A stretch of 64,000 nucleotides of DNA from NCBI GenBank assembly GCA_017163975.1, contig JAFFSR010000035.1, positions 1,206,001-1,270,000 of the forward strand, in the 5' to 3' direction. Position 1 is the stretch's first letter. Every line of letters starts with the position of its first letter. The DNA is from Anastatus disparis. Taxonomy: Eukaryota; Arthropoda; Insecta; Hymenoptera; Eupelmidae. The position numbers and the translations under genes are program-made. The notes under the pieces are model-generated. The model saw only the letters and a list, made by a program, of their open reading frames with translations, made no database searches and was not told where the DNA came from. Of this stretch, positions 1,603 to 58,338 are shown piece by piece.

Positions 1603-1985
1603 AAGTATATTGGATCTCTCTATTCTTTTCTTATTGAAAAATGTAGATTTTTGAAAAAACTAGTGATTACTGATATAAATTAAGAGTCGTCCGCAACTTG
1701 CATAGTAAAAAGCAACAGTTCCTCTGATGAGGATAAATTAATTTTTTGGCTTTATTTTGAAGAAAAGTTTGACATTCTTAAACATCATATTCTCTAGCCT
1801 AACTTATGACTTTGTTGTCAAACTTTTCATAAAAACAAAGCATCAAAATTAATTTGTCCTCATAAAAAAAATATTGCTTTTTACTATACAAGTTGCGGAC
1901 AACTCTTAATTAATATCAATAATGACTAATTTTTCCAAAAACCTACATTTTCAATTAGAAAAGGATGGAGAGATCTAGCGTCCTC
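1603..1985. mobile_element. TTAA-flanked fold-back MITE, family C (383 bp)
   Basis: This is an imperfect palindrome. The left arm contains AGTCGTCCGCAACTTGCATA and the right arm TATACAAGTTGCGGACAACT. TTAA occurs at 1599-1602 and 1986-1989. Read from the right end inward, the terminus resembles family B at 42.6 and 54.3 kb: GAGGACG, then ATCTCTCC, then CCTTTTCTAAT. Arm divergence is higher than in families A and B, which suggests an older insertion. It lies about 90 bp from the family A copy. Confidence 0.72.
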
Positions 1986-1989
1986 TTAA

Positions 1990-2315
1990 AAAAAAACGAT
2001 CATTTTTTGCCCAGAAAATTGGCAATTTTTTAAATATCAAAAAAATCCTAGTTCATGGTATGTAAAAACATGTTATGAATATTCACACAAAATTTCAAAT
2101 CAATATCTTAATTTTTCTTTGAGCTAGAGCTGCAGTCATTTTTGAAAAGGCAGTTTCGCATATCGAGTCTTTTAGCTTCCGCTCGGCGATATCTACACTA
2201 GCTATCCGCGCCAGCCAGGCAGTTTTGATGTTGTGGACTCTTGTCAGTCGAGCCCATATGAAAATATATATGATAAAAACAAGAAAATATTTTTTTTTGC
2301 GTTTCAGGTTATTTC
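1990..2315. other. Unassigned AT-rich interval
   Basis: A slightly GC-richer patch at about 2150-2245 has no open frame of note. No repeat structure was recognised. Confidence 0.4.
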
Positions 2316-7316: not shown

Positions 7317-8404
7317 ATTGGCATTATCGTTACGGACACTTAAATGAAGGAGATCTGCACAAACTGTCGTCAAACCAATTAGTAAAGGGAATGCCTGCAA
7401 TGAGCAAAGAAAAAATGCCGCAATGTGAAATATGTATTGCTGGAAAACAAACAGCCACACCAGTACCAAAATTTTCGACTTCACAAGTAAAAAATCTGCT
7501 GGATATTATTCACTCCGATGTTTGTGGTCCTTTACAACCTACATCAATTGGTGGCTCTAGGTATTTTACTACATTTATTGACGATAAGTCAAGGTATGTT
7601 CATATATACTTCTTAAAGCATAAATCCGAAGTAAAGTCTGTTTTTATAAAGTTTAAAAATCTAGTAGAAAACCAAAAGAAAAGAAAAATTAAAATATTGA
7701 GGACTGATAATGGTCTTGAATATTGTGGTTCAAATTTTTTACAGTTTATAGAAGATGAAGGAATAAAAAGGGAGCGTAGAACAGCATACACGCCTCAACA
7801 AAACGGGATCGCAGAGCGAATGAATCGCACGCTTATGGAAATGGCTAGGCGCATGCTGCTCCAATCTGACTTACCAAAAAGTTTTTGGGCAGAAGCTGTA
7901 CAAACAGCTGTGTATATTAGGAACAGATGTCCCACAAGAAGTATAAGTGCTGACACAACTCCATACGAAGGGTGGTTTAATAGGAAACCCATAGTAAATC
8001 ATCTTCGTCCCTTTGGAAATAAAGCTTATGCTTTAAACAAAGTAAGTTTAAATGAAATGAGTTCAAGTGATGAGCATGAGGATAATTCAGAGGCTGAAAG
8101 CTCCTTATCAGATGAAGAAACAAAGAATCAAGAGCAGGTCGACAAGGAGAGTGATAGTAATGAAAAAGCTTCCGATTCAAAGGAACATACGCCTTCAACA
8201 TCTACAAAAATTGGTCCTGGAAGGCCTTCTACTTTAAAGACAGGAAAGAGGGGCCGACCTAAGAAAGTATATAATCTAGTGCAAAATAAACTGGATTATG
8301 CTAACTTTATAATAGAAAATGCAGAAGAATCAGTAGATGATGCCCTATCTGGGGATCACGCTAAAGAGTGGCAAAAAGCCATGGAAATGAATTTAATTCA
8401 TTGA
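7299..8404 (+). pseudogene. Copia integrase and linker
   Basis: The GAG-pre-integrase segment W-H-x-R-Y-G-H-L...C-E-I-C-I-x-G-K supplies the HHCC zinc site. The catalytic core follows: D in H-S-D-V-C-G-P, D in R-T-D-N-G-L-E-Y and E in Q-N-G-I-A-E-R, giving the D,D35E set. Copia integrases normally continue through a K-A-Y-V/L...G-Y domain. Here, after H-L-R-P-F-G-N-K-A-Y the frame jumps straight to an acidic Ser/Glu linker, so roughly 50-100 residues are probably deleted. The frame stops at 8402-8404 and RT resumes in another frame. Confidence 0.9.
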
Positions 8405-9891
8405 AAAAAAATAAAGTTTGGACATTAGTAGAACAGCCGAAAAATTGCACGCCAATCGGTTGTCGCTGGGTGTTCAAGACGAAGTACAAAGCTGACGGAA
8501 CTGTAGAACGGCGAAAAGCCAGACTTGTAGCAAAAGGCTACGCACAACGACCAGACGTGGATTTCAAAGAGACATTTGCTCCTGTAGCTAAGTTTTCATC
8601 AATAAAGTTAGTAATATCACTGTCAGCAGAATTAAAATTAGATTTGTATCAATTAGACATAACTATGGCTTACACATATGATTACCTGAATGAAGACCTA
8701 TATATGGAACAAGCAGATTATTTTGTTGAAGCAAAAAAGGAAGATCATGTGTATCATTTGAAAAGGGCTCTTTACGGCTTGAAGCAGGCTGGGAGGCAAT
8801 GGTATGAACGTTTAGATGACTTATTTACTGCAATAGGATTGGAACACATTGATTCAGACCCTTGTCTATATATTTTAAAAGGTGATAATAAAATTTTAAT
8901 ATTGACGTCTTATGTTGATGATTTGATAATTGCCACAAATGACTATAACTTATTCGCAAAAGTGAAGAATAATTTAGAAGAAAAATTCGAGGTAAAAAAT
9001 CTTGGACGGTTAAGATTCTGTCTTGGGATGGAGTTCATTCAAGATGAAATCACAAAGAGCGTATATATTACTCAAAGAAAATATATACAAGACTTGATCA
9101 AAAAATTCCAACTAAATGAAGCTCATGTGGCATCTACTCCATTGGAACCTAAAATAAAATTATTAAAAGAAGATGATTCAAAACTAGTCGATCAAAAATA
9201 CTACCAGTCAATTATTGGCTCGTTAATGTACGCAGCAATAAATACAAGACCAGACATCATGTACTCGGTCAGTATGTTAAGCACCTTTAATACGTGTCCT
9301 AGGAAGGCACATCTAGAATGTGCGAAAAGAGTTTTAAAATACCTTAAAGGTACTCTATCATACAGTTTATTCTTTTATAACACAGCTAAGCCTCTTGAAG
9401 GATATGTGGACGCTGATTGGGGAAGCGATGTGAATGATAGATCATCGCGCAGTGGATATTTTCTCGTGCTTGGAGAAGCAGCTATCACATGGCAGTCAAA
9501 AAAGCAAAGATGTGTGGTGCTGTCAAGCACAGAAGCCGAATACATAGCTTTAGTCGAAGCAGGGAAAAAAGTTATGTATTTAAGGTCAATTTTAGATAAG
9601 ATAAACAAAGAGTCAAATAGCAAAACTCAAACTGTTGTCCACTGTGACAATTAAAGTGCTGCCAAGCTCATGAAAAATCCTGTGAATCATGACAGATCGA
9701 AACACATAGATATCAAGTACCATTTTATTCGGAACGTGTATCAAGAAAAAAGGCTAGATGTACTATATCTTCACCCTAGTGAAATGCCAGCTGATGTGCT
9801 CACGAAGAGTTTAAATAAACCTCAACATTATAAACATATCAAGAAAATGGGATTGATTGAACTTCAACCTTTTCATATATGTACGCGGTAA
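8390..9891 (+). pseudogene. Copia reverse transcriptase and RNase H
   Basis: The RT opens with W-T-L-V...G-C-R-W-V-F-K-T-K and R-K-A-R-L-V-A-K-G-Y-x-Q. It carries the catalytic aspartates in L-Y-Q-L-D-I and in the Y-V-D-D-L box (near 8911-8925). RNase H follows with Y-V-D-A-D-W-G, S-S-T-E-A-E-Y and H-C-D-N. A TAA at 9652-9654 interrupts it where family members have a Gln before S-A-A-K-L; one C-to-T change explains it. The frame then continues open through the terminal H-I-D-I-K-Y-H-F-I-R and A-D-V-L-T-K motifs to 9891, just before the 3' LTR. Active-site residues are intact. Confidence 0.92.
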
Positions 9892-15158: not shown

Positions 15159-15173
15159 ATGAACTGTCTAGAT

Positions 15174-15538
15174 TTTTTTTTTTTTTTTTTTTTTTTTGAG
15201 ATTAATATATAAAGGATATTGTCCTCTATATGATTAACCTTTTAATATGGTGAAGTCGAGGGAGTCCCCCGCCCGGCATCTGTTTAACACATTACATCAG
15301 GCTAGGACTGTCAGACCCACCATACCGAAAACTTTGACTACCGATGGATGGTCAGCCACTTTTGTAACCAACAATCAACCGATACCCAATGAGGTCGGAT
15401 TTTTTAAAGAGTCGCGATATAAATGGCACATACACTTATTTTCTTTCGAAAAAAAAGTGAGAGGTACCTGGCCAGGATTCGAACCCATGCCCTCCGCGTT
15501 GAAGGCAAGAGCTCTATCCATTACACCACCGCGCTCTC
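15174..15538 (-). mobile_element. tRNA-derived SINE, copy 1, full length with TSD
   Basis: On the minus strand it starts GAGCGCGGTGGTGTAATGG, runs through a perfect Pol III B box GGTTCGAATCC (15475-15485) and ends in a long A tail (T tract at 15174-15196). A 15-bp duplication ATGAACTGTCTAGAT flanks it at 15159-15173 and 15539-15553. The body matches the copy at 57717-58080 along its length. A small hairpin (AAGGATATTGTCCTCTATAT region) precedes the tail. SINEs are non-coding and use LINE enzymes. The apparent 102-codon frame here is coincidental. Confidence 0.95.
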
Positions 15539-15553
15539 ATGAACTGTCTAGAT

Positions 15554-17306
15554 AGAAGTTAAATTTCGTTAAATTTCCCCTAAAAAGTAAACATATCAAA
15601 AAAAAATTTACTTATTATTTGCAAAACACTTATTAAAAATGTGGAAAAAAATAATATTCTGTAATATTACTCTAAAATTTGTATTAAATATGATCATTAA
15701 AAGTACAATTATTTCATTATGTTGAATTTGTTGTCAAAGTTTGATTATATTTCACTATAAGAAGATATAAAAATTAACTGTCATATTCAACTGTCTTTCC
15801 ATTCTATTGCTGAATTTCCATAAAAGGAATGTTAGTATGTACCATGATGATTATTTATTCAAATTTTAAAATTGCTCTAATCATTAATTTTTAACATATT
15901 TAGATTTCTGATTCCAAATAGAAAAATATTAGTAAATAATATTGGAACCCAAACTTCTCAATAACTAATGAATAGATTTATTTCCAAATTCAACTGAATA
16001 ATCTTTGTGATACATTCTATATATTAATGCATCTCTTTATTCAAAATTTTGAAATACAATGGAAATATAGTCAATATTTATCGGTGCAAGTGTACTGTCC
16101 ATTTTACATCTCCTTAAATAATTTATTCTTATAAAATTTACATAATATTTTATAAAAACTATTAAAATGATAATCATATATTTAATATTATTTTAAACTA
16201 TGAATTAAAAGTTTAAAAAATTATTATTAAGTGATAACTTATGAATAGTTATATTATTTTATTAAATACATTTCCAACTTGAATAATTATCTTCATTTTA
16301 AAACTAAATTTAATTAGCATTCCATTCCATAAGCTATTTAAAAAATTTACCATTATTCAAAGATATTGAAAAGTTATTTATAAAAAGTATTCCCATATAA
16401 AAATTCCAAACTTCTATTAATTTAATTTTTTATTCTTTACATTAGAGAATTAATTTTGATGTTGAAATTTTTTTGTGATATGCAACATATATATATGTAT
16501 ATATATATTATCTTATGGTAAAATATTTTATCACTTTGTATGAAAATTATTTTTTAAAAGTAGAATAATACTGTGAATAAACAAATGATTATAAGAAAAT
16601 ATTGAAAACTGCAAATAACAATAAAAAAGCGGTAGGCTGGAGATAAATAATGATTGTTAATTATCATTTATACATTTTTTAAATGTGTGGGTTACATGAG
16701 AGTGGAATAAGTCACATACTTCTAATTTCAAGATTTTCGTAATTTCGATATTAAAGTTTTAAATAAATATACATTTTTATTGAGTGCCATTTTTACAGTG
16801 CTTATAATATTAAAGAAAAATAAACAAAAAAGCCACTCTATTTTGAAAAATAAGTTGTTATGTTAAAGAAATGAAATATGCCACTAACTAAATATTTTTT
16901 TAAATGTAACTTATGCCACTCTCATTCTCACCCACACGAACGTTGATACTGCAAATATCCGTGAATAACTGTAAATAAATTGAAGAATACAATTATTAGA
17001 AATAACTCAAAATAAATTTTCATTTTAGTTTTTTTTACAAAAAACTTTTCTTAATGATTAAATATATATATAAATGTACAATTGCCGAATATAACCTTTT
17101 TTTACCGTTATATTATTTTTACAAATTTTATTATTATTTATTTATCATATAACAATTAATTCATAGCATTTTTCATAATTTCTTTTATTTTTCAGCTTTT
17201 AAACTAAAAAGGCAGTAAATTAAATTAAATAATATAAGAGCAAATCTTTTGAAAAACGTTCATTAAAAATGAATTAAAATTCTTAAAAGAATTTTAATTT
17301 ACAATA
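15554..17306. other. AT-rich interval, nothing recognised
   Basis: There are no long frames. A short (TA)n lies at about 16487-16510. Confidence 0.5.
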
Positions 17307-26880: not shown

Positions 26881-28035
26881 AAGGAAAAGAAAAAAAATAG
26901 AAAATAAAAGAATTGAGTACTCAGATATCAGAGAAGAAGAGATAAGAGAAATAATAAGAAACCTGAAAAATAAAAAAGCTACAGGAGAAGATATGATACC
27001 GAATGAAGCATGGAAAGTAGGTATAATAAACCCAATATTTAAAAAAGGAAATGCAAATGAAGCAAAAAGTTATAGAGGTATAACCCTAATGGACACAGGT
27101 GATAAAATATTTGCAGAGGTTATAAGGAAAAGATTAGAAACAGAGATTAAAGAGAAAAATCTACTAAGTGAAACACAGTTCGGATTTAGAAAGAATAGAG
27201 GAACAATAGACGCTATGTACTGCTTAAAAACAATAATAAAGAAGGAAATAAAAAAAAAAAGGGAAAGTAGTTGTATTCTTTGCAGATATGAAAGCAGCTT
27301 TTGATAGCCTAAATAGAGAAGAATTGTGGAAAATGATGAGAAGATTAAGGATAGAAGAAGAAACTAGAGAAAACATAGAAAAGATATATAAAGGAACGAG
27401 AGCGAAAGTAAGAATCGAAGGAGAGAGATATACAAAAGAATTTAAAATAGAGAAGGGAGTAAGGCAAGGATGTCCCTTGAGTGAAACAATATTTAATCTA
27501 GGTTTTTCAGATTTAGAGAGCAGTATGAAAGAAGGACAAATAGGTGGAATAGAAATAGGCAAAGAGAAGGTGTACACAATATCATATGCTGACGATGTTG
27601 CATTACTAGAAAAAAGTGCAAGTGAAATGTGCAGCCGAATGAAAAGATTTGGTAAATATATAGAAAAAAAAGGATTAGAACTGAATGTAAAGAAATAAAA
27701 AATTATGGAATTTAGAAAAGCTGGTGGAAGAAGAAAAGAAGAAAAGTATAGATGGAAAGGGAAAGAAATAGAAATTGTAAAATCCTTTGTGTACCTAGGA
27801 TATAAGCAACAAGGCAACAACAAGGATGAAAACCATATAAAAGAATAAAAGGTTAAAGTAAATAGAAAAATGGGAAAAAAGTGGAGCATAGCAGAAAGGT
27901 TATTCAAAAACAACTGGAAAAGAAGAATGGAGCTCTTTAACTCACTTATAAAAAGTATATTTATGTACGGAGTAGAAATATGGGAGTGGAAAAGGAAAGA
28001 AAAAATAGAAAGGATACAGAAAAAATTTTTAACAA
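26881..28035 (+). pseudogene. LINE reverse transcriptase, N-terminal and palm part
   Basis: It opens with K-N-K-K-A-T-G-E-D and passes G-I-I-N-P-I-F-K-K-G, then Y-R-G-I-T-L-M-D-T. After a frameshift near 27270 it carries A-D-M-K-A-A-F-D-S-L (first Asp), G-V-R-Q-G-C-P-L-S and S-Y-A-D-D-V-A-L-L (catalytic Asp pair). The N-E-A-W-K block joins directly to G-I-I-N-P, so about 30 residues usual between them seem deleted. A TAA at about 27696 and another near 27846 break the thumb region. The frame K-K-F-L then runs into the inserted element. Confidence 0.88.
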
Positions 28036-42217: not shown

Positions 42218-42600
42218 TATGAAGAGTGTATGAGGGGTATGAGGGGTTATAAAAAGTAACTTGGGTAGTGAGGGGTATCTTTTTTATCTTTTTAAAAAGA
42301 AGACATTTCAAGAGATATTTTTACGTTATTTTGAGTGGTGACTTGTGATTGATTTGAGGAAGAGAGAAATATAATAAGGGTTAGTAGTGGGAAGGGTGGT
42401 AGTAGTGGTGTAGGGAATGAGTAACAAATGCATTGGTAAAATAAGGTGTATATAGCTAAATTATCTGAGGGGTGTATGAGTGATGTATAAAGGGTAGCAA
42501 AAGGGGTGACTTGAGTAGTGAGGGGTGTCGTTTTTTTCAAAAAAGATAATTTCTAGACAGATTTTCACGTTATTTTGAGGGTTAAGTTGTAATATTTTAA
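42218..42600 (+). repeat. Direct duplication, ~240-bp period
   Basis: GAGTGTATGAGGGGT, then CTTGGGTAGTGAGGGGTATC and ATTTTTACGTTATTTTGAG recur as GGGTGTATGAGTGATG, CTTGAGTAGTGAGGGGTGTC and ATTTTCACGTTATTTTGAG. The second copy is interrupted at its end by the TTAA element. Confidence 0.75.
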
Positions 42601-42981
42601 GAGGAGGTCACGTATCTCTGTCCTTTTCTAATCAAAGAATTGAGTTTTTTACAGAAACTAATAACTTTAGCAAAAAATGAAGAGAAAGCCGCATCTCGTA
42701 TCAAAAAAAGCAATATTTTCTTTGATAAGAAAAAATTAATTTTATTGCTTCGTTCTCAAGGAAACCTTGAAGAGCCAAATTGTCCACCCTAACCTCTATG
42801 ATTTAAGTTTTTCAAGGTTTTCTTGAAAACGAAGCAATAAAATTAATTCTTTCTTATCAAAGAAAATATTGCCTTTTTTGATACGAGATGCGGGTTTCTA
42901 TTCATTTTTTGCTAAAGTTATTAGGTCCTGTAAAAAACTCAATTCTTCGACTAGAAAAGGACAGAGATACGTGACCTCCTC
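42601..42981. mobile_element. TTAA-flanked fold-back MITE, family B copy 1 (381 bp)
   Basis: Inverted arms GAGGAGGTCACGTATCTCTG and CAGAGATACGTGACCTCCTC run nearly to the centre. TTAA is intact on both sides (42597-42600 and 42982-42985). There is no coding capacity. The central loop contains CCACCCTAACCTCTATGA. It is the same length as the family B copy at 54289 and both family A copies. Confidence 0.9.
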
Positions 42982-42985
42982 TTAA

Positions 42986-43082
42986 GCATACAAAAAAGGG
43001 GGAGGAATAATAAGGGGTAGGTGAGGAGGTATATTTTGTTTTATATAACTATATAATATAGGGGTATATATATATGTATATA

Positions 43083-44293: not shown

Positions 44294-44347
44294 CAAAATT
44301 CAGAGAAAAAAAGTGCTGATGCTGAAATAAAATATGTAGACAGATGC

Positions 44348-45560
44348 ATGGCAAATAAAACTCCATGTGAAATAAAAGAAAGAGTTGAAAAAATAATGAG
44401 TATTTTAAACTTGGAAGATTTGAACGTAGAAGAAAAAATGCACGTCAGAGAGTTGATATCCGAGAACCCCTTCGTTTTCGGGTTAGATAATGAATTATTG
44501 CCAGCAACAAATATTTTAACACACAGAATAAAAACGACTCATGAGGAGCCAGTTCGTGTGAAACCATACAGATATCCGATAGCATTAAAAAATATTATGC
44601 AGCAAGAAATAGAGAAGTTACTGAAAAAAGATATTATAGAACCATCTATGTCGAGTTATAGTAGCCCGGCATGGATAGTTAACAAGAAACCTGACCCTCA
44701 GGGCAGGAAACGCTGGCGTTTGGTGACAGATTTTCGCCAACTAAATGAAATCACTGTGGGAAGTTGCTATCCACTGCCATTAACTTGTGACATCTTAGAA
44801 AATTTAGCGTCAGCAAATTATATTACCGCCGTAGACCTTAAGGACGGCTATTATCAGGTAAAGATTGATTCAAAAGATGCACATAAAACTGCGTATTCAG
44901 GGCCATCGGGTACATATCAATACAAGCGTATGGCTATGGGGTTATGCGAAGCACCCATGACCTTTAGCAGAGCAATGGCTCTAGCTTTGCAGGGCTTGCA
45001 AGGTTCAGAGCTTGAAATTTACTTCGATGACGTAATTATACACGCCGAAAATTTAGAACAGCATACAGTAAGATTTAAGAGATTTTTAAAACGTATTGAA
45101 AAGGCAAACTTGACTATAGAACCAAAGAAATGTCAATTTTTAAGACGCGAGGTGAAGGTATTAGGACATATAGTAGGAAAATGGCAAATTAAATCAGACC
45201 CTAAAAAGATAGAAGCAGTGCATGATTATCCTAGACCAACAAATAAAAAGAAAGTAAAGCAATTTTTAGGCTTTGTTGGTTATTATCGTCGATTCATCAA
45301 AGATTTTGCAAGCATAGCAAGACCGTTACATAAATTAAGTTCAAAGAAAGAGAAATTTCTATGGCTAGAAGAGCATCAAATAGCATTTGGCACGTTACGT
45401 GAGAAGCTATGCGAAGAGCCTGTGTTGGCCGCGCCTAACTTAAGCGAGCCATTTATATTAACAACAGATGCGTCTGATTATGCGATAGGCGCAATATTGA
45501 GTCAAGGAAAAATCGGCGAAGATCGACCTTGTGTATATGCCTCAAGATGTTTAAAAGGAA
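44348..45560 (+). pseudogene. pol: Gypsy reverse transcriptase
   Basis: Canonical order: S-P-A-W-I-V-N-K-K, R-L-V-T-D-F-R-Q-L-N (finger), F-S/T-A-V-D-L-K-D-G-Y-Y-Q (first catalytic Asp), G-L-C-E-A-P-M-T-F, and the active-site Y-F-D-D-V. Then come L-G-H-I-V and the connection domain F-L-G-F-V-G-Y-Y-R-R-F-I. The box is YFDD instead of the common YLDD/YVDD. The RNase H start T-T-D-A-S-D-Y-A-I-G-A-I-L is in frame. A frameshift at about 45555 moves reading to the next frame. Confidence 0.92.
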
Positions 45561-46128
45561 GCGACTTAGGTATACTGTATATGACAAAGAATTGTTGGCA
45601 GTTGTTTTTGCAAAAGAACAGTTTAGACCTTATCTATACGGTACGAAATTTACAGTAGTTACGGATCATGAGCCGTTAAAACATTTCCATACAAGCACAA
45701 AGCCGGACTTAAGATTTAATAGATTAAAAGCAGCTTTACGAGGGTATACATTTGACGTTGTGTATAGGCCAGGAAGAAAAAATAATGCAGCTGATGCACT
45801 CTCTAGAAACCCAGTAATTGCAGGCGGCGAAGAAAATCCTGAATTACCACGTGCAGAAATGTATCAACTAGCAGATAAGCAAGAAAATCAGGAACCAAAC
45901 GCAAACGAATGCGGTCCACCAGCAAGAATTTTTATTACACGTGCAATAAATAAAAATGCGAATAAAACTAAAGAAGAAGATTCAAGTTCAGAAAATTCTG
46001 ATAATTCTAAAAAGAAAATCTTTATTAAAGAAACAAGTGACGAGTCAGAAATCAATAGTATAACCGGATCCGGAGAAAATTGGAATTATGCAAAAAGAAA
46101 GAAAGTACAAAAGGAAAAGGCGAAATAA
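45529..46128 (+). pseudogene. Gypsy RNase H, C-terminal part, and basic linker
   Basis: After the frameshift it reads Y-D-K-E-L-L-A-V-V-F-A, F-x-V-V-T-D-H-E-P-L-K, then R-P-G-R-K-N-N-A-A-D-A-L-S-R, the usual RNase H end. Next is a Ser/Glu/Lys linker that stops at 46126-46128. In typical Gypsy elements the HHCC integrase begins within 100 codons of this point, but none of its motifs appears. Confidence 0.85.
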
Positions 46129-51731: not shown

Positions 51732-51958
51732 GTATGTTCCAGCGTTGTTATAGAAAAAGTTTATTTATATCATTATTTTATGTAATTTGCTTTTTCATGA
51801 AAATGAAAATTAAAATAATTTAACATAGCGTTTCTTCAGTATTTTATGTTATGCCATCATTACTGAAATTATTTTTTAAATTAAACATCAAATTAGTTAA
51901 GATTAATTATAAGTCATGCGAGAAATATCCATAATTTAAGAAAAATAAATATTTAATA

Positions 51959-52263
51959 CACTGAAAAAAATAGAATCTAGAACCAATGAGAATCCGCTTG
52001 GTCGTAGAAGATTTTCGTTTTGTTTTGAGCCGTAGTGGAATTCCGCTTGACTCAAGAGGAAAATCTGCTTCAATGATATCGACTTCCTTCTAATAGATAT
52101 TATGCTACCACCTAGCAGAAATATTTTTGAAGCAACTAAACTTTAATATGATGAATATTTATCTTGATTATAGTTATTAGGTACAACTAGATTTCTATTT
52201 GATTCAAGAACTAAGAATCAAATAGATTTTTCCTCTTACTCCTAGATTCTATTTTTTTCAGTG
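51959..52263. mobile_element. 305-bp MITE, CACTGAAAAAAATA ends
   Basis: Inverted ends CACTGAAAAAAATAGAATCT and AGATTCTATTTTTTTCAGTG carry TA on each side (51957-51958 and 52264-52265). The opposite arm of the host palindrome at about 56965-56985 reads GTTCTATTAAATATTT with a single TA. It therefore preserves the site before insertion. Confidence 0.95.
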
Positions 52264-52499
52264 TAGAACACGAATGTTAATGATAAAAATATTATTCACT
52301 CCAGACGCTGAAACACAAGAACTTTCAATTTTTTAATAAAAATGTATTAATAAAATTGAATTTCTTTGCTACTAAGCTCAACCAGTGACCAATTTTTTGT
52401 TATAATAAATTTAATTATTTATAACCCTGTTAAAAATTATAAATCAAAAAACTAAGGATGATTTTGGAAATAAAATTATTTCTAATCAACATGGAAATA

Positions 52500-55400
52500 T
52501 AGTAAATAGTGTAACGTGCGATATTGTAATTACAAGATTTTTTTAGAGAGTTGCGTGTTTTCATATTTCTCGAGTTCTATCTAACCGAATGAGGTTTTAT
52601 AGGGCTTAATTCTTAGCCTAAGACTTATAAAATAAAATTGAAATTATTAAGTTTGCGAAAAATAGCCTAGCTTTAATAACGATTCTGTAATGTTCAAAAT
52701 TCGTATGAAACGAAAATCAAGAGTCGGGTTCCCTTGAGATTTCTCATACTAAAATGTTGAATAATCACTGAAAAATGCCATAAATTTATAGTTTTTTACT
52801 TGAAAATAAAGCACGATTTTTAATTTCACGAAATCAATTTTCTAACGTGAATTATTCTATTTACAAGATTTTTTTTAGACAGATGCGTGTTTTCATATTT
52901 CTTAAGTTCTATCTAACCGAATGAGGTTTTATAGGGCTTATTTTTTAGCTTAAGACTTATATAATCAAATGGCAATTGTTAAGTTTACGAAAAATTAGCC
53001 CATCTATAATTGCGATTCTGTAATGTTCAAAATTCGTATGAAACCAAAATTAAGAGTCGGTTTCACTTGGGATTTCTTATACTAAAATGTTAGATAATCA
53101 CTAAAAAATGCCATAAATTTATAGTTTTTTACTATAGAATAAAGCAGAATTTTCGAATTTCGCGATATTAATCTTCTAACCTGAAATATTCTATTTACAA
53201 GACTTTTATTTTATAGTTGCGTGTTTTCATATTTCTTGAGTTCTATCTAACCGAATGAGGTTTTATAGGGCTTATTTTTTAGGCTAAGACTTATATAATC
53301 AAACGGCAATAGTTAAGTTTACGAAAAATTAGCCCATCTATAATTGCGATTCTGTAATGTTCAAAATTCGTATGAAACCAAAATCAAGAGTTGGTGTCCC
53401 ATCAGATTTCTGATACTGAAACTTTGAATAATCACTGAAAAATGCCATAAATTTATAGTTTTTTACTTAAAAATGAAGCACGATTTTTGATTCTTACGAA
53501 ATCAATTTTCTAACGTGAATTATTCTATTTACAAGATTTTTTTTAGACAGTTGCGTGTTTTTATATTTCTTGAGTTCTATCTAACCGAATGAGGTTTTAT
53601 AGCGCTTATTTTTTAGCTAAGACTTATATAATCAAACGGCAATAGTTAAGTTTACGAAAAATTAGCCCATCTATAATTGCGATTCTGTAATGTTCAAAAT
53701 TCGTATGAAACCAAAATCAAGAGTCGGTGTCCCATCAGATTTCTGATACTGAAACTTTGAATAATCACTGAAAAATGCCATAAATTTATAGTTTTTCACT
53801 TAAAAATGAAGCACGATTTTTGATTCTTACGAAATCAATTTTCTAACGTGAATTATTCTATTTACAAGATTTTTTTTAGACAGTTGCGTGTTTTTATATT
53901 TCTTAAGTTCTATCTAACCGAATGAGGTTTTATAGCGCTTATTTTTTAGCCTAAGACTTATATAATCAAATGGCAATAGTTAAGTCTACGAAAAATTAGC
54001 CAATCTTTAATTGCGATTCTGTAATGTTCAAAATTCGTATAAAACTAAAATTAAGAGTCAGTTTCACTTGAGATTTCTTATACTAAAATGTTAGATAATC
54101 ACTGAAAAATGCCATAAATTTATAGTTTCTTACTATAAAATAAAGCAGAATTTTCGAATTTTGCGATATTAATCTTCCAACCTGAAATATTCTATTTACA
54201 AGACTTTTATTTTATAGTTGCGTGTTTTCATATTTCTCGAGTTCCATCTAACCGAATGAGGTTTTATAGGGCTTGTTTTTTAGCTTGAGAGGAGGTCATG
54301 TATCTCTGTCCTTTTCTAATCAAAGAATTGAATTTTTTACAGAAACTAATAACTTTATCAAAGAATGAAGAGAAAGCTGCATCTCGTAATGAAAAAAGCA
54401 ATATTTTCTTTAATAAGAAAGAATTAATTTAATTGCTTCGTTTTCAAGAAAACCTTGGAAAACTTAAATCATAGAGGTTAGGGTGGAGAATTTGATTTTT
54501 CAAGGTTTTCTTGAAAACGAAGTAATAAAATTAATTTTTCCTTATCAAAGAAAATATTGCTTTTTTTGATACAAGATGCGGCTTTCTCTTCATTTTTTGA
54601 TAAAGTTATTAGTTTTTGTAAAAAAATCATTTCTTTGATTAAAAAAGGACAGAGATACGTGACCTCCTCTTAAGACTTATATAATCTAATCGCAATAGTT
54701 AAATTTACAAAAAATTAGCCAATCTATAATTGCGATTCTGTAATGTTCAAAATTCGTATGAAACCAAAATCAAGAGTCGGTTTCCCATAGGATTGTTCAT
54801 ACTAAAACGTTAAATTATCACTGAATAATACCATAAATTTATAGATTTTTACTTCAAAATAAAGCACAATTTGCAATTTTAACGATATCAATTTCCTATC
54901 GTCAGATATTGTTTTGACAAGATTTTTTTTGGACAGTTGCGTGTTTAAATATTTCTCGAGTTGTATCTAACCAAATGGGGTTTTAGAAGGTTTATTTTTT
55001 AGCTTAAGACTTATATAATCAAATTGCAATGGTTAAGTTTACGAAAAATAAGCCAATCTATAATTGCGATTCTGTAATGTTCAAAATTCGTATGAAACCA
55101 AAATTAAGAGTCGGTTTCACTTGGGATTTCTTATACTAAAATGTTAGATAATCACTAAAAAATGCCATAAATTTATAGTTTTTTACTATAGAATAAAGCA
55201 AAATTTTCGATTTTTACGATATAAATCTTTTAACCTGAAATATTCTATTTACAAGACTTTTATTTTATAGTTACGTGTTTTTATGTTTCTCGAGTTCTAC
55301 TAACCGAATGAGATTTTATAGGGCTTATTTTTTAGCTTAAGACTCATATAATCAAATCGCTATTCTTTAATTCACGTAAATTTAGCCCATCTATAATTGC

Positions 55401-55500
55401 GATTCTGTTACCAAACAAAAATCGAAACTCGGTTTTCCATAGGATTGTTCATACTAAAACGTTGAATTATCACTAAATAATACCATAAATTTATAGCAAT
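52500..55500 (+). repeat. 334-bp satellite, eight forward units
   Basis: The anchor TGCGTG or a variant recurs at 52552, 52884, 53218, 53552, 53885, 54219, 54938 and 55272. Spacing is 332-334 bp throughout if the 385 bp of the MITE plus its TTAA is subtracted from unit six. Shared blocks include TAACCGAATGAGGTTTTATA, CTTATATAATCAAA and TCTGTAATGTTCAAAATTCG. Two unit types, with GATTTTTTTTAGACAG or GACTTTTATTTTATAG before the anchor, are interspersed. Confidence 0.93.
54289..54669. mobile_element. TTAA-flanked fold-back MITE, family B copy 2 (381 bp)
   Basis: It inserted in satellite unit six at AGCTTAAGAC. The right TTAA (54670-54673) is intact; the left now reads TTGA (54285-54288). Ends are GAGGAGGTCATGTATCTCTG and CAGAGATACGTGACCTCCTC. 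Neighbouring satellite units show the unoccupied AGCTTAAGACTTATATAATC. Confidence 0.94.
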
Positions 55501-55599
55501 CTCATGGAAAAGCGACTATTTATCTTGGTTCTATAAGAATATTAAATATTATACTATCGCAATCAGGGATTGGTTAATTTTTTGTGTATTATTGCGATT

Positions 55600-56715
55600 A
55601 AATAATATAAATATTAGGCAAAATAACAAGTCCTATAACCTCATTTGGTCAGATATAACTCGAGAAATGTAAAAACATGCCTCCGTCTAAAGAAAATCTT
55701 GTAAATACAATATCTGACGTTAGAAAATTAAGATCGTGAAAATCGATATTCGTTCTTTATTTTAAAGTGAAAAAGTATGAATTTATATACTTTTTCTAGT
55801 GATTATTTAACGTGTATGTAAAATCTTATGGGGAACCGACTCTTGATTTTCGTTTTATACGAATTTTGAACATTACAGAATCGCAATTATAGATGGGCTA
55901 ATTTTTCGTAAACTCAACTATTGCGATTTGATTATATAAGTCTTAAGCTAAAAAAAAAGTGCTATAAAACCTCATTCGGTTTGATAGAACTTAAGAAATA
56001 TGAAAACACGCAACTATAAAATAAAAGTCTTGTAAATAGAATATTTCGGGTTAGAAGATTCATATCGTAAAAATAAAAAATTCTGCTTTATTTTGAAGTA
56101 AAAAACTATAAATTTATGGCATTTTTAAGTGATTATTTAACATTTTAGTATGAGAGATCTCAAGGGAAACCGACTATTGATTTTCGTTTCATATGAATTT
56201 TAAATATTACAGAATCGCAATTATAGATGGGCTAAGTTTTCGAAAACTTAAATATCACCATTTGATTATATAAGTCTTAAGCTAAAAAATAAGCCCTATA
56301 AAACCTCATTCGGTTAGATAGAACTTAAGAAATATGAAAACACGTAACTGTCTAGAAAAAACCTTGTAAATAGAATAATTCTCGTTAGAAAATTGATTTC
56401 GTGAAATTGAAAATCGTGCTTTATTTTAAAGTAAAAAACTATAAATTTATGGCATTTTTTGGTGATTATTCAAATTTTCAGTATAAGAAATCTCATGGGA
56501 AAGCGACTCTTGATTTTTGTTTCATACGAATTTTGAACATTACATAATCGCAATGAAAGCTGGGCTAATTCTTCGTAAACTTAACAATTGCAATTTGATT
56601 ATATAAGTCTTAAGCTAAAAAATAAGCCCTAGAAAACGTTATTCGGTTAGATAGAACTTAAGAAATATGAAAAGACGCAACTGTCTAAAAAAATCTTGTA
56701 AATACAATATCTCAC
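55600..56715 (-). repeat. 334-bp satellite, four inverted units
   Basis: These are the same units as the forward array in opposite orientation, with anchors at about 55686, 56006, 56341 and 56674. About 100 bp of unrelated or heavily diverged DNA (55500-55600) separates the arrays. Confidence 0.9.
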
Positions 56716-56719
56716 GTTA

Positions 56720-57160
56720 CAGTATTTACCATATTTCTATGTGGATTAGAAATAATTTTATTTGTAAAATCATCCTTAGTTTCTTGATTTATAATTTTCA
56801 ACAGGGTTATAAATAATTAAATTTATTATAACAAAAAATTGGTCACTGGTTGAGCTTGGTAGCATAGAAATTCAATTTTATTTATACATTTTTATTAAAA
56901 AATTGAAAGTTCTTGTGTTTTCAGCGTCTGGAGTGAATAATATTTTTATCATTAACATTCGTGTTCTATTAAATATTTATTGCCCTTAAATTATGGATAT
57001 TTCTCGCATGACTTATAATTAATCTTAACTAATTTGATGTTCAATTTTAAAAATAATTTCAGTAATGATGACATAAATTATAATACTGAATAAGCGCTAT
57101 GTCAAATTATTTTAATTTTAATTCTCATGAAAAAGCAAATTACATAAAATAATGCAACAA
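56720..57160 (-). repeat. Inverted partner of the left subterminal arm
   Basis: It matches the reverse complement of about 51765-52500, for example AATTGGTCACTGGTTGAGCT and TATTTCTCGCATGACTTATA. It lacks the 305-bp MITE carried by the left arm. Confidence 0.9.
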
Positions 57161-57716
57161 TTAATCGATATAAAAAAGCTGGATGTAATCTTTTAAATAT
57201 TTACGATTGATTTATTTAACCTTTTGTGTCTATTGTTTGAGTATTACGCATAAATTTCTTGCTTAAGATGAGTCTCGCTCGTGGTAAGGGTCGATAAAAC
57301 ACAACATTATTTCAGTTTTAATTATCTAATTTCATATTTAAAACAATATCTTTTTGTTTATTGTATTTTATCATTATAATATAATTTATTTATAACGATA
57401 TCCGTTTGTATTTTATGTTTTTTCAATTGAAATAACGTAAAATACAAAAGAAATCCTATATCGATGCACAATTTTCAAATCATTTATAAAATTATAAATA
57501 AGTGCAATAAATTAATTTTATTATAATAACTTTTTTTTCTTTTATTTATTATTAATTATCAGATCATAAAAAATATTTTTTTAAATACTTTTTTTTGACC
57601 GATTCTGAGTATTTTTGAATTTCCCTCTCTGACGCTACCACTATTGGCATCGCATGTTTTAATATAAATATTTTCAATTTCACTAAATTAAAATTTAGTA
57701 TCATCTATATTCTTTA

Positions 57717-58080
57717 TAGGAGCGCGGTGGCGTAACGGATAGAGCTCTTGCCTTCAACGCGGTGGGCACGGGTTCGAATCCTGGCCAGGCACCTCTGACT
57801 TTTTTTCGAAAGAAAATTAGTGTATGTGCTACCCATATCGCGACTCTTAAGAAATCTGACCTCATTGAGTATCGGTTGATTGTTGGTCACAAAAGTGGCT
57901 GACCATCCATCGGTAGTCAAAGTTTTCGGTATGGCGGTGTCTGACAGTCTAGCCTGATGTAATGTGTTAAACGGTTCCGGGCTGGGCTCCCTCGACATCT
58001 CCATAGAAAAAGGTTAATTATATAAAGGATAACAATATCCTTTATATATTAATCTTTTTTTAAAATAAAAAAAAAAAAAA
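57717..58080 (+). mobile_element. tRNA-derived SINE, copy 2, full length with TSD
   Basis: It begins TAGGAGCGCGGTGGCGTAAC with an A-box-like TGGCGTAACGG and a perfect B box GGTTCGAATCC (57771-57781). The body is shared with the copy at 15.2 kb. A 3' hairpin (AAGGAT...ATCCTTTATATA) is followed by the A tail. The 17-bp duplication ATCATCTATATTCTTTA lies at 57700-57716 and 58081-58097. It is inserted within the hAT-like element. It should not be called as a functional tRNA gene. Confidence 0.96.
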
Positions 58081-58338
58081 ATCATCTATATTCTTTAATT
58101 AATGTTTACTCTAAAGAGATAAATACTCTGAGTAAATACTGATATTTTTATTTTAATAAAAATATCACCTAACCTAAATTAGCATATGTAGCGTATAAAA
58201 CTCGGCTACTGTAGCAAAAGGTGCAGAACATAAAAGTTACTAAAACTCCCTAGATTGCTTTGACACTCTACTATAGCTAAAGGAAAAAAGTGGGGGGTGC
58301 CGTGTCGAAACTTTTTCTATAACAACGCTGGTATGTTC

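What the first reader, a model, noticed from the sequence alone, without database searches (positions are those of the whole stretch)
51740..58330. A 334-bp satellite packaged inside a hAT-like transposon
Perfect 8-bp target duplications (GTATGTTC) and 23-bp inverted ends bracket 6.6 kb. It contains eight forward and four inverted copies of a ~334-bp satellite and inverted subterminal arms, but no transposase. A satellite array moved as cargo by a cut-and-paste transposon would be a route for seeding satellites at new loci. The opposing arrays also make a giant hairpin-capable locus.
Basis: partly seen in the sequence, partly recalled or inferred. Interest (0 to 1): 0.9.

Follow-up and report, generated by a model that had tools for sequence, protein, structure and literature searches.

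The report
Jumping palindrome built of satellite DNA
This is one copy of a family of mirror-image mobile DNA elements, probably from an insect, whose arms are made of satellite repeats, and two almost identical copies at different places show that a whole block of satellite repeats has recently moved as one piece.

Summary
Window 51740-58330 has 23-bp perfect ends, an 8-bp duplication (GTATGTTC) and 7.8 forward plus 3.7 inverted copies of a 334-bp repeat.

The genome holds 101 places with this end (100 listed), forming 32 close convergent pairs. Perfect 8-bp duplications flank 25 of 32, two more match 7 of 8, five have none. The duplications follow the hAT pattern nTnnnnAn.

Fifteen satellite-bearing copies carry 5.2 to 21.4 units; 13 of 15 share one inversion point. 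The array is thus an inherited part of the element's mirrored arms, not separately captured cargo.

Two 8.3-kb copies on different contigs, each with 17.5 units, agree at 8296 of 8299 aligned bases (13 gap columns), with different duplications and unrelated flanks: a whole array moved, recently.

The window copy is damaged: about 770 bp of its left arm are missing and three other transposons sit inside.

Closest known: Tetris of Drosophila virilis, a foldback element with tandem repeats in its arms. New here: hAT identity, an array seen moved whole, and 31-kb relatives, one with a fragment that resembles a hAT transposase.

The parts
51732..51739 (+). left target site duplication GTATGTTC
   Evidence: pairs with 58331-58338
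51740..51762 (+). left 23-bp terminal inverted repeat
   Evidence: 23 of 23 identical; 101 places genome-wide within 2 mismatches
51771..51958 (+). left arm, outer part (about 770 bp of arm are missing between it and the TIR)
51959..52263 (.). nested MITE, TA duplicated; the opposite arm keeps the uninterrupted site
52264..52504 (+). left arm, inner part
52505..54288 (+). forward 334-bp units L1-L5 and first part of L6 (edge to the MITE approximate)
54289..54669 (.). nested MITE in TTAA (left copy reads TTGA)
   Evidence: similar copies at 42597-42995 and 1617-1997
54670..55496 (+). forward units, rest of L6 to L8; inversion point at 55496|55497
   Evidence: same inversion point in 13 of 15 copies
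55497..56726 (-). inverted 334-bp units R4-R1
56727..57164 (-). right arm, inner part, mirror of the left arm (409/438 identical with it)
57165..58307 (-). right arm, outer part, mirrored in other copies but deleted from this copy's left arm; holds the SINE
57717..58080 (+). nested tRNA-like SINE with 17-bp duplications ATCATCTATATTCTTTA
   Evidence: similar copy at 15171-15566
58308..58330 (-). right 23-bp terminal inverted repeat
58331..58338 (+). right target site duplication GTATGTTC

Best explanation
It is a non-autonomous foldback element of the hAT superfamily. Each side is a long mirrored arm (23-bp TIR, about 1.2 kb of arm sequence, then tandem 334-bp units), and the two arms meet at one inversion point without a spacer. 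Shown: separate insertions with their own 8-bp duplications; one shared, hence ancestral, inversion point; unit number that differs between copies and between arms; and an entire 17.5-unit array present at two unrelated sites with different duplications. Inferred: a hAT transposase acting in trans, probably from 31-kb relatives with the same ends, moves the element; unequal exchange or repair between units and arms changes array length; the window copy arrived with an array and was then eroded by a deletion and three insertions.
For: Perfect 8-bp TSDs in 25 of 32 convergent TIR pairs, against 0 of 306 mismatched left/right flank comparisons among 18 of those elements. TSDs follow nTnnnnAn: 30 of 50 letters against 14.0 expected, 0 of 20,000 shuffles as high. 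The same inversion point in 13 of 15 copies. L015 and L023: 8296/8299 identical with 13 gap columns, opposite orientation, TSDs ATGACACT and ATGGTGGC, no flank similarity, 11.8 + 5.7 units each. A 289-aa open-ended ORF in a 31-kb relative with the same ends and an 8/8 TSD, which I read, from recall of hAT sequences, as a transposase fragment.
Against: The transposase match is weak: DUF4371 at E 0.0034, 17.7 bits against a cut-off of 32.1, and no PDB sequence match. Five of 32 pairs have no TSD, and C296 needs the outer of two tandem left ends. L009 and L024 lack the shared inversion point. Hermes, a known hAT element, loses most activity with symmetric ends (PMC10368747, section 14), whereas full copies here have mirrored ends. 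In the window itself TIR and TSD identity is only weakly informative about timing: P = 0.12 for 31 of 31 unchanged at the arms' divergence.
Confidence: 0.88

Rival explanations
1. Captured cargo: a satellite that already existed was picked up by a hAT element, perhaps several times, and is only a passenger.
For: Satellite runs longer than those in the window element exist at C135, C207, C200 and C28. Related elements with the same ends carry no satellite (10 of 32 pairs lack the satellite's arm sequence). No origin of the unit inside the arms was found.
Against: One inversion point in 13 of 15 copies and outermost units whose nearest relative in another copy is again an outermost unit in 9 of 13 cases (no shuffle test) argue for a single origin and descent. 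The long runs that I could place have the element's arm sequence beside them. One single ancient capture is not excluded.
Confidence: 0.15
2. The two outer ends belong to different elements and the TSD match is chance.
For: The left flank is a GT-rich simple repeat, in which short matches are commoner; 8 window positions have an identical 8-mer at this spacing. In 5 of 32 pairs the TSD is missing.
Against: 23 of 23 bp TIR match, mirrored arms, and the same plan with perfect TSDs at other loci.
Confidence: 0.02
3. The arrays or palindromes are assembly artefacts.
For: L019 has mirrored flanks and L013/L014 are one locus present on two contigs, so some assembly oddities exist.
Against: Same plan and inversion point at 12 loci besides the window, perfect TSDs in 25 of 32 pairs, units and arms of the window copy diverged, and nested insertions in single arms.
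Confidence: 0.02
4. L015 and L023 became alike by gene conversion or segmental duplication, not by transposition.
For: Arms of some copies look homogenised: outermost units of the two arms of L020 are 99.1% alike.
Against: Identity stops at the TIR tips, the flanks show no similarity, and each copy has its own perfect, different TSD.
Confidence: 0.03

Closest known systems
Tetris of Drosophila virilis (PMC4079207; abstract, sections 10 and 12 and part 1 of section 16 read)
   Same: Non-autonomous foldback element whose long TIRs hold tandem repeats (about 220 bp) between outer and inner domains; unit number differs between alleles (three against four); repeats also in kb-size arrays elsewhere.
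   Different: Its authors suggest the Mutator superfamily (TSD 8-10 bp); it has a middle domain between the TIRs; no transposase was found. Here the TSDs are 8 bp with the hAT pattern, the arms meet without a spacer, unit number reaches 21.4 in the copies counted, and two near-identical copies show a whole array at two sites.
Galileo, P superfamily (PMC4168063; abstract read)
   Same: TIRs of very variable length, in three D. willistoni copies extended by internal tandem repeats, other TEs or non-TIR sequence; ends better conserved than the rest.
   Different: P superfamily, TSD 7 or 8 bp with consensus GTATTAC; not built of a 334-bp satellite.
Hermes and other hAT elements (PMC10368747: passages and section 14; PMC8961557: passages)
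   Same: 8-bp TSD with preference nTnnnnAn and TIRs of 10-25 bp.
   Different: Hermes needs unequal ends and retains little activity with symmetric ones; full copies here have mirrored ends of more than 1 kb.
miDNA4 of Xenopus and other tandem-repeat MITEs (reviews PMC12628747 and PMC9659126; passages read)
   Same: A non-autonomous DNA transposon with an internal satellite array of variable unit number.
   Different: Described there as a Tc1/mariner MITE; here the arrays are mirrored in both arms of a hAT foldback element.
Macro-dyad satellite blocks of Tribolium (PMC13081366; abstract read)
   Same: Satellite arrays in mirrored orientation with conserved inversion sites.
   Different: Megabase (peri)centromeric regions, not transposon copies.

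Membership tests
hAT superfamily | 8-bp target site duplication | tested here: met
   25 of 32 pairs 8/8, 2 of 32 7/8, 5 of 32 none
hAT superfamily | target preference nTnnnnAn (stated for Hermes) | tested here: met
   T at position 2 in 17 of 25, A at position 7 in 13 of 25; 0 of 20,000 shuffles reach the sum. The window's own TSD has T2 but not A7
hAT superfamily | TIR of 10-25 bp | tested here: met
   23 bp in the window; in other copies a mirrored arm continues inward beyond it
hAT superfamily | hAT transposase on an autonomous relative | tested here: inconclusive
   289-aa open-ended ORF in the 31-kb C225 copy; DUF4371 E 0.0034, below cut-off; C-terminal domain not read; genome search with it did not complete
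foldback elements | long mirrored arms between short conserved tips | tested here: met
   six satellite copies compared have outer arms mirrored at 96-99.7%; satellite-less copies are near-perfect palindromes
foldback elements with tandem repeats in the arms (Tetris-like) | tandem units inside both arms with variable copy number | tested here: met
   5.2 to 21.4 units in 15 copies
Tetris family proper | sequence relationship to Tetris | not tested
   no Tetris sequence was fetched; superfamily and unit length differ
classical satellite DNA | long tandem arrays beyond the transposon | tested here: inconclusive
   533 matches of a unit 24-mer, with longer runs at C135, C207, C200 and C28 (first 100 places listed), but arm sequence lies beside each; interiors not read

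The most novel reading that the evidence does not exclude
A hAT foldback family is the vehicle of this satellite across the genome. It moves, mirrors and lengthens arrays, up to tens of kilobases (mirrored arms 56 kb apart on C135 and 99 kb apart on C28), and its arm-plus-satellite module has passed to an element with quite different, TTAA-flanked ends (C28). The satellite landscape and its inverted blocks would then be products of transposition.
Probability: 0.35. Interest if true: 0.85.

Novelty: new variant of a known kind. Interest (0 to 1): 0.74.

Why it matters
How satellites reach new loci is a long-standing question, often argued from sequence resemblance alone. Here two insertions with different target duplications hold the same 17.5-unit array, identical at 8296 of 8299 aligned bases, so movement by transposition is visible directly and is recent. 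The family offers a graded series of unit numbers and arm lengths, and 31-kb relatives that may supply the transposase, in which array growth, exchange between arms and transposition can be told apart.

Tried and rejected
My first reading, before the genome search answered, was that the unmirrored right end (57165-58307) showed naturally unequal ends as in Hermes. Searches refuted it: other copies mirror this stretch, so the window copy has lost part of its left arm. TIR-like motifs in the satellite unit: not above shuffles. AAGT subterminal sites: no excess. Origin of the unit in the arms: nothing convincing. Scans of IMG/VR for the TIR and for a unit 24-mer, and of the GTDB contigs for the unit 24-mer: 0 exact matches. 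Gene blocks inside C296 as the element's own transposase: rejected, because the array resumes in phase behind both blocks (unit positions 27|24 and 203|202), so both are nested insertions; Pfam named neither. Polinton-like genes as part of the family: in C204 they sit in an insertion flanked by a repeat of about 5 bp of arm. The window's element ORFs gave no transposase domain (one weak unrelated match).

Papers: ten searches listed no hAT foldback element with satellite arms; this covers that open-access library only. PMC3879986 is not held.
Full report
1. The observation. The element spans 51740-58330 (6591 bp). Its first and last 23 bp are perfect inverted copies; the first 20 bp match nowhere else in the window within 3 mismatches. 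GTATGTTC directly flanks both ends. The array is real: 7.8 forward and 3.7 inverted units of 334 bp. Within the window copy forward units are 79-96% alike, inverted units 74-85%, and forward against inverted 73-90%.

2. Clean-up of the window copy. Three later insertions can be taken out of the picture. A MITE at 51959-52263 duplicated TA, and the opposite arm preserves the uninterrupted site. A second MITE at 54289-54669 sits in TTAA and has similar copies in the window at 42597-42995 (91%) and 1617-1997 (69%). A tRNA-like SINE at 57717-58080 has 17-bp duplications and a similar copy at 15171-15566 (87%). Without the first MITE the outer arms are 409/438 identical. Compared with L023 and L016, the window's left arm lacks arm positions 24 to about 793, while its right arm is complete apart from the SINE.

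3. Unit order. Among the 24 pairings of L1-L4 with R1-R4, the mirrored order ranks first for each of three column sets. If any of the eight left units may be chosen, some other choices score slightly higher, so this test alone is modest. The closest pairs, L3/L4 at 96% and L2/L5 at 95%, lie within the left arm, so that array kept changing after the mirror was made.

4. The genome. After seven unanswered calls the genome search (939 Mb, 399 contigs, unnamed) gave 101 ends within 2 mismatches, 100 of them listed, and 0 for the reversed control. The listed ends form 32 adjacent convergent pairs under 60 kb, 3.6 to 36 kb long. Target duplications: 8/8 in 25 of 32, 7/8 in 2 (L017, L014), none in 5 (L009, L024, L019, L022, C337). 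L014 is the same locus as L013 on another contig, and L019 has mirrored flanks. For C296 the match needs the outer of two tandem left ends, which has 3 mismatches; the inner one gives 5/8. As a control, left flanks against right flanks of other elements among 18 gave 8/8 in 0 of 306 comparisons; the two comparisons with 7/8 fit the one-letter difference between the TSDs of L016 and L021, whose flanks show no similarity.

5. hAT identity. In the 25 distinct perfect duplications T at position 2 occurs in 17 and A at position 7 in 13: 30 of 50 together, against 14.0 from shuffling letters inside each, with 0 of 20,000 shuffles as high. This is the nTnnnnAn preference stated for Hermes (PMC10368747, passage). 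A 31-kb relative on C225 with the same ends and an 8/8 duplication holds a 289-aa open-ended ORF that I read, from recall of hAT sequences, as a transposase fragment. Pfam gives only DUF4371 at E 0.0034, below its cut-off, and a zinc finger at E 0.0095; there is no PDB sequence match. The same element has a 282-aa ORF with PDB matches to Ulp1/SENP peptidases (best E 3.6e-05) but no Pfam match at 0.01. Five pieces of 1.2-1.5 kb and the two ends of this copy were read; three of the five pieces hold no ORF of 75 aa or more.

6. The satellite-bearing subfamily. 22 of 32 pairs hold the satellite's arm sequence. I counted units in 15: 5.2 (L009), 7.5, 8.7, 9.1, 9.4, 9.5, 11.5 (window), 12.3, 13.4, 13.5, 15.2 (L024), 16.4, 17.5, 17.5 and 21.4 (C337); the other 7 of the 22 were not counted. 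The array turns round at the same place, unit position 289 to 242 without a spacer, in 13 of 15; L009 and L024 do not show it. In 9 of 13 cases the nearest relative, in another copy, of an outermost unit is again an outermost unit, among 86 units of eight copies (L015 and L024 were left out, and no shuffle test was made). I read this as descent from one mirrored ancestor.

7. Movement shown. L015 (C225, 8311 bp) and L023 (C294, 8300 bp) lie in opposite orientation at unrelated sites. They match in 8296 of 8299 aligned bases with 13 gap columns, have 11.8 and 5.7 units on the two arms, and carry the different duplications ATGACACT and ATGGTGGC. A satellite block of about 5.8 kb is thus present at two sites as part of one element, which is what transposition leaves.

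8. Satellite-less relatives. Ten of 32 pairs lack the satellite arm. Nine of the ten were read, in full or in pieces; of C373 only the ends. They share about the first 280 bp with the satellite subfamily at about 84%. Eight of them, read whole, are palindromes with arms of about 1.7 to 4.7 kb at 97-99.6%; C204 has such arms with an insertion. So the ends, not the content, hold the family together.

9. Satellite beyond these pairs. A unit 24-mer has 533 matches within 1 mismatch, the first 100 listed, including runs at C135:29226931-29278703, C207:377009-386810, C200:339427-343123 and C28. Each of these has the arm sequence beside it, on both sides at C135 and C28 and on one side at C200 and C207. 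On C28 two arms face each other 98.7 kb apart; the stretches fetched at their outer edges are 199/199 identical and end at TTAA with another terminus. On C135 they are 56 kb apart, with no known end where I looked. The interiors were not read, so whether elements seeded these arrays is open. 42 of 78 arm hits lie outside the listed pairs, 10 of these within 3 kb of a listed end.

10. Mechanism. Shown: common origin, TSD-flanked insertions, variable unit number, a whole array at two sites. Inferred: transposase in trans from the 31-kb relatives; array change by unequal exchange or repair. L020's outermost units on opposite arms are 99.1% alike, which suggests exchange between arms. A hairpin is possible from the anatomy; no expression data were available.

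11. Known systems. Tetris (PMC4079207) has the same architecture; its authors suggest the Mutator superfamily. Galileo (PMC4168063, abstract) is a P-superfamily case. The review passages that I read (PMC12628747, PMC9659126) name no hAT element with satellite arms. I file this as a new variant of foldback transposons with tandem-repeat arms.

12. Host. The best named matches of one window retroelement are from Trichogramma (four best hits at 54-62% identity), so the host may be hymenopteran; this is weak. The best matches of a second retroelement point to no one group.

Noticed in passing
C225:9005191-9036430, C237:2600267-2631130, C328:4745671-4776892 (L047-L052, L063-L067): Three copies of 30.9-31.2 kb with the same ends and perfect, different 8-bp duplications; each has a single satellite-arm hit about 4.5 kb from one end. 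The C225 copy holds a possible hAT transposase fragment and a Ulp1-like peptidase ORF: candidate autonomous partner.
   Followed up: partly
C28:126204-224931 (L045, L046): Satellite arms face each other 98.7 kb apart; the outer edges are 199/199 identical and end in TTAA plus a terminus unrelated to CAGCGTTG. The same arm variant occurs at C72:527106, C200:338894 and C207:376476. Possibly a giant TTAA-flanked element that shares the satellite module.
   Followed up: partly
L025 (C387), L018 (C258), L022 (C288), L011, L012, L013: Satellite-less members of the family are near-perfect palindromes with arms up to 4.7 kb at 97-99.6% identity, L025 self-complementary over its whole 9.5 kb.
   Followed up: partly
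L028-L029 (C204) and L040-L041 (C246): Polinton/adintovirus-like genes lie inside arms of two family members: integrase core, phospholipase A2-like domain, Pox_A32-like ATPase and double jelly-roll domain by Pfam. Described only; in C204 the insertion is flanked by a repeat of about 5 bp.
   Followed up: partly
L031:2837-6860 and L031:7709 to L032:4670 (C296): Two nested insertions with gene-like ORFs interrupt the satellite array and leave it in phase; Pfam named neither.
   Followed up: partly
C222:598137, 600837 and 611526 (L037, L038): Two left ends 2.7 kb apart share the same 8-bp duplication TTACCGAG with one right end, together with simple repeat at both: looks like a local duplication of an element's left part.
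   Followed up: no
L013/L014 and L019: L013 and L014 are one locus present on two contigs in opposite orientation; L019 has fully mirrored flanks, an assembly oddity or inverted duplication.
   Followed up: partly
window 8365-9651, 44294-45655, 27252-27695: Reverse transcriptase ORFs elsewhere in the window: a copia-type one (RVT_2), a gypsy-type one and a third with RVT_1.
   Followed up: no
window 1617-1997, 42597-42995, 54289-54669: Three copies of a palindromic MITE, TTAA-flanked where checked; its start TTAAGAGG resembles the terminus seen at C28.
   Followed up: no
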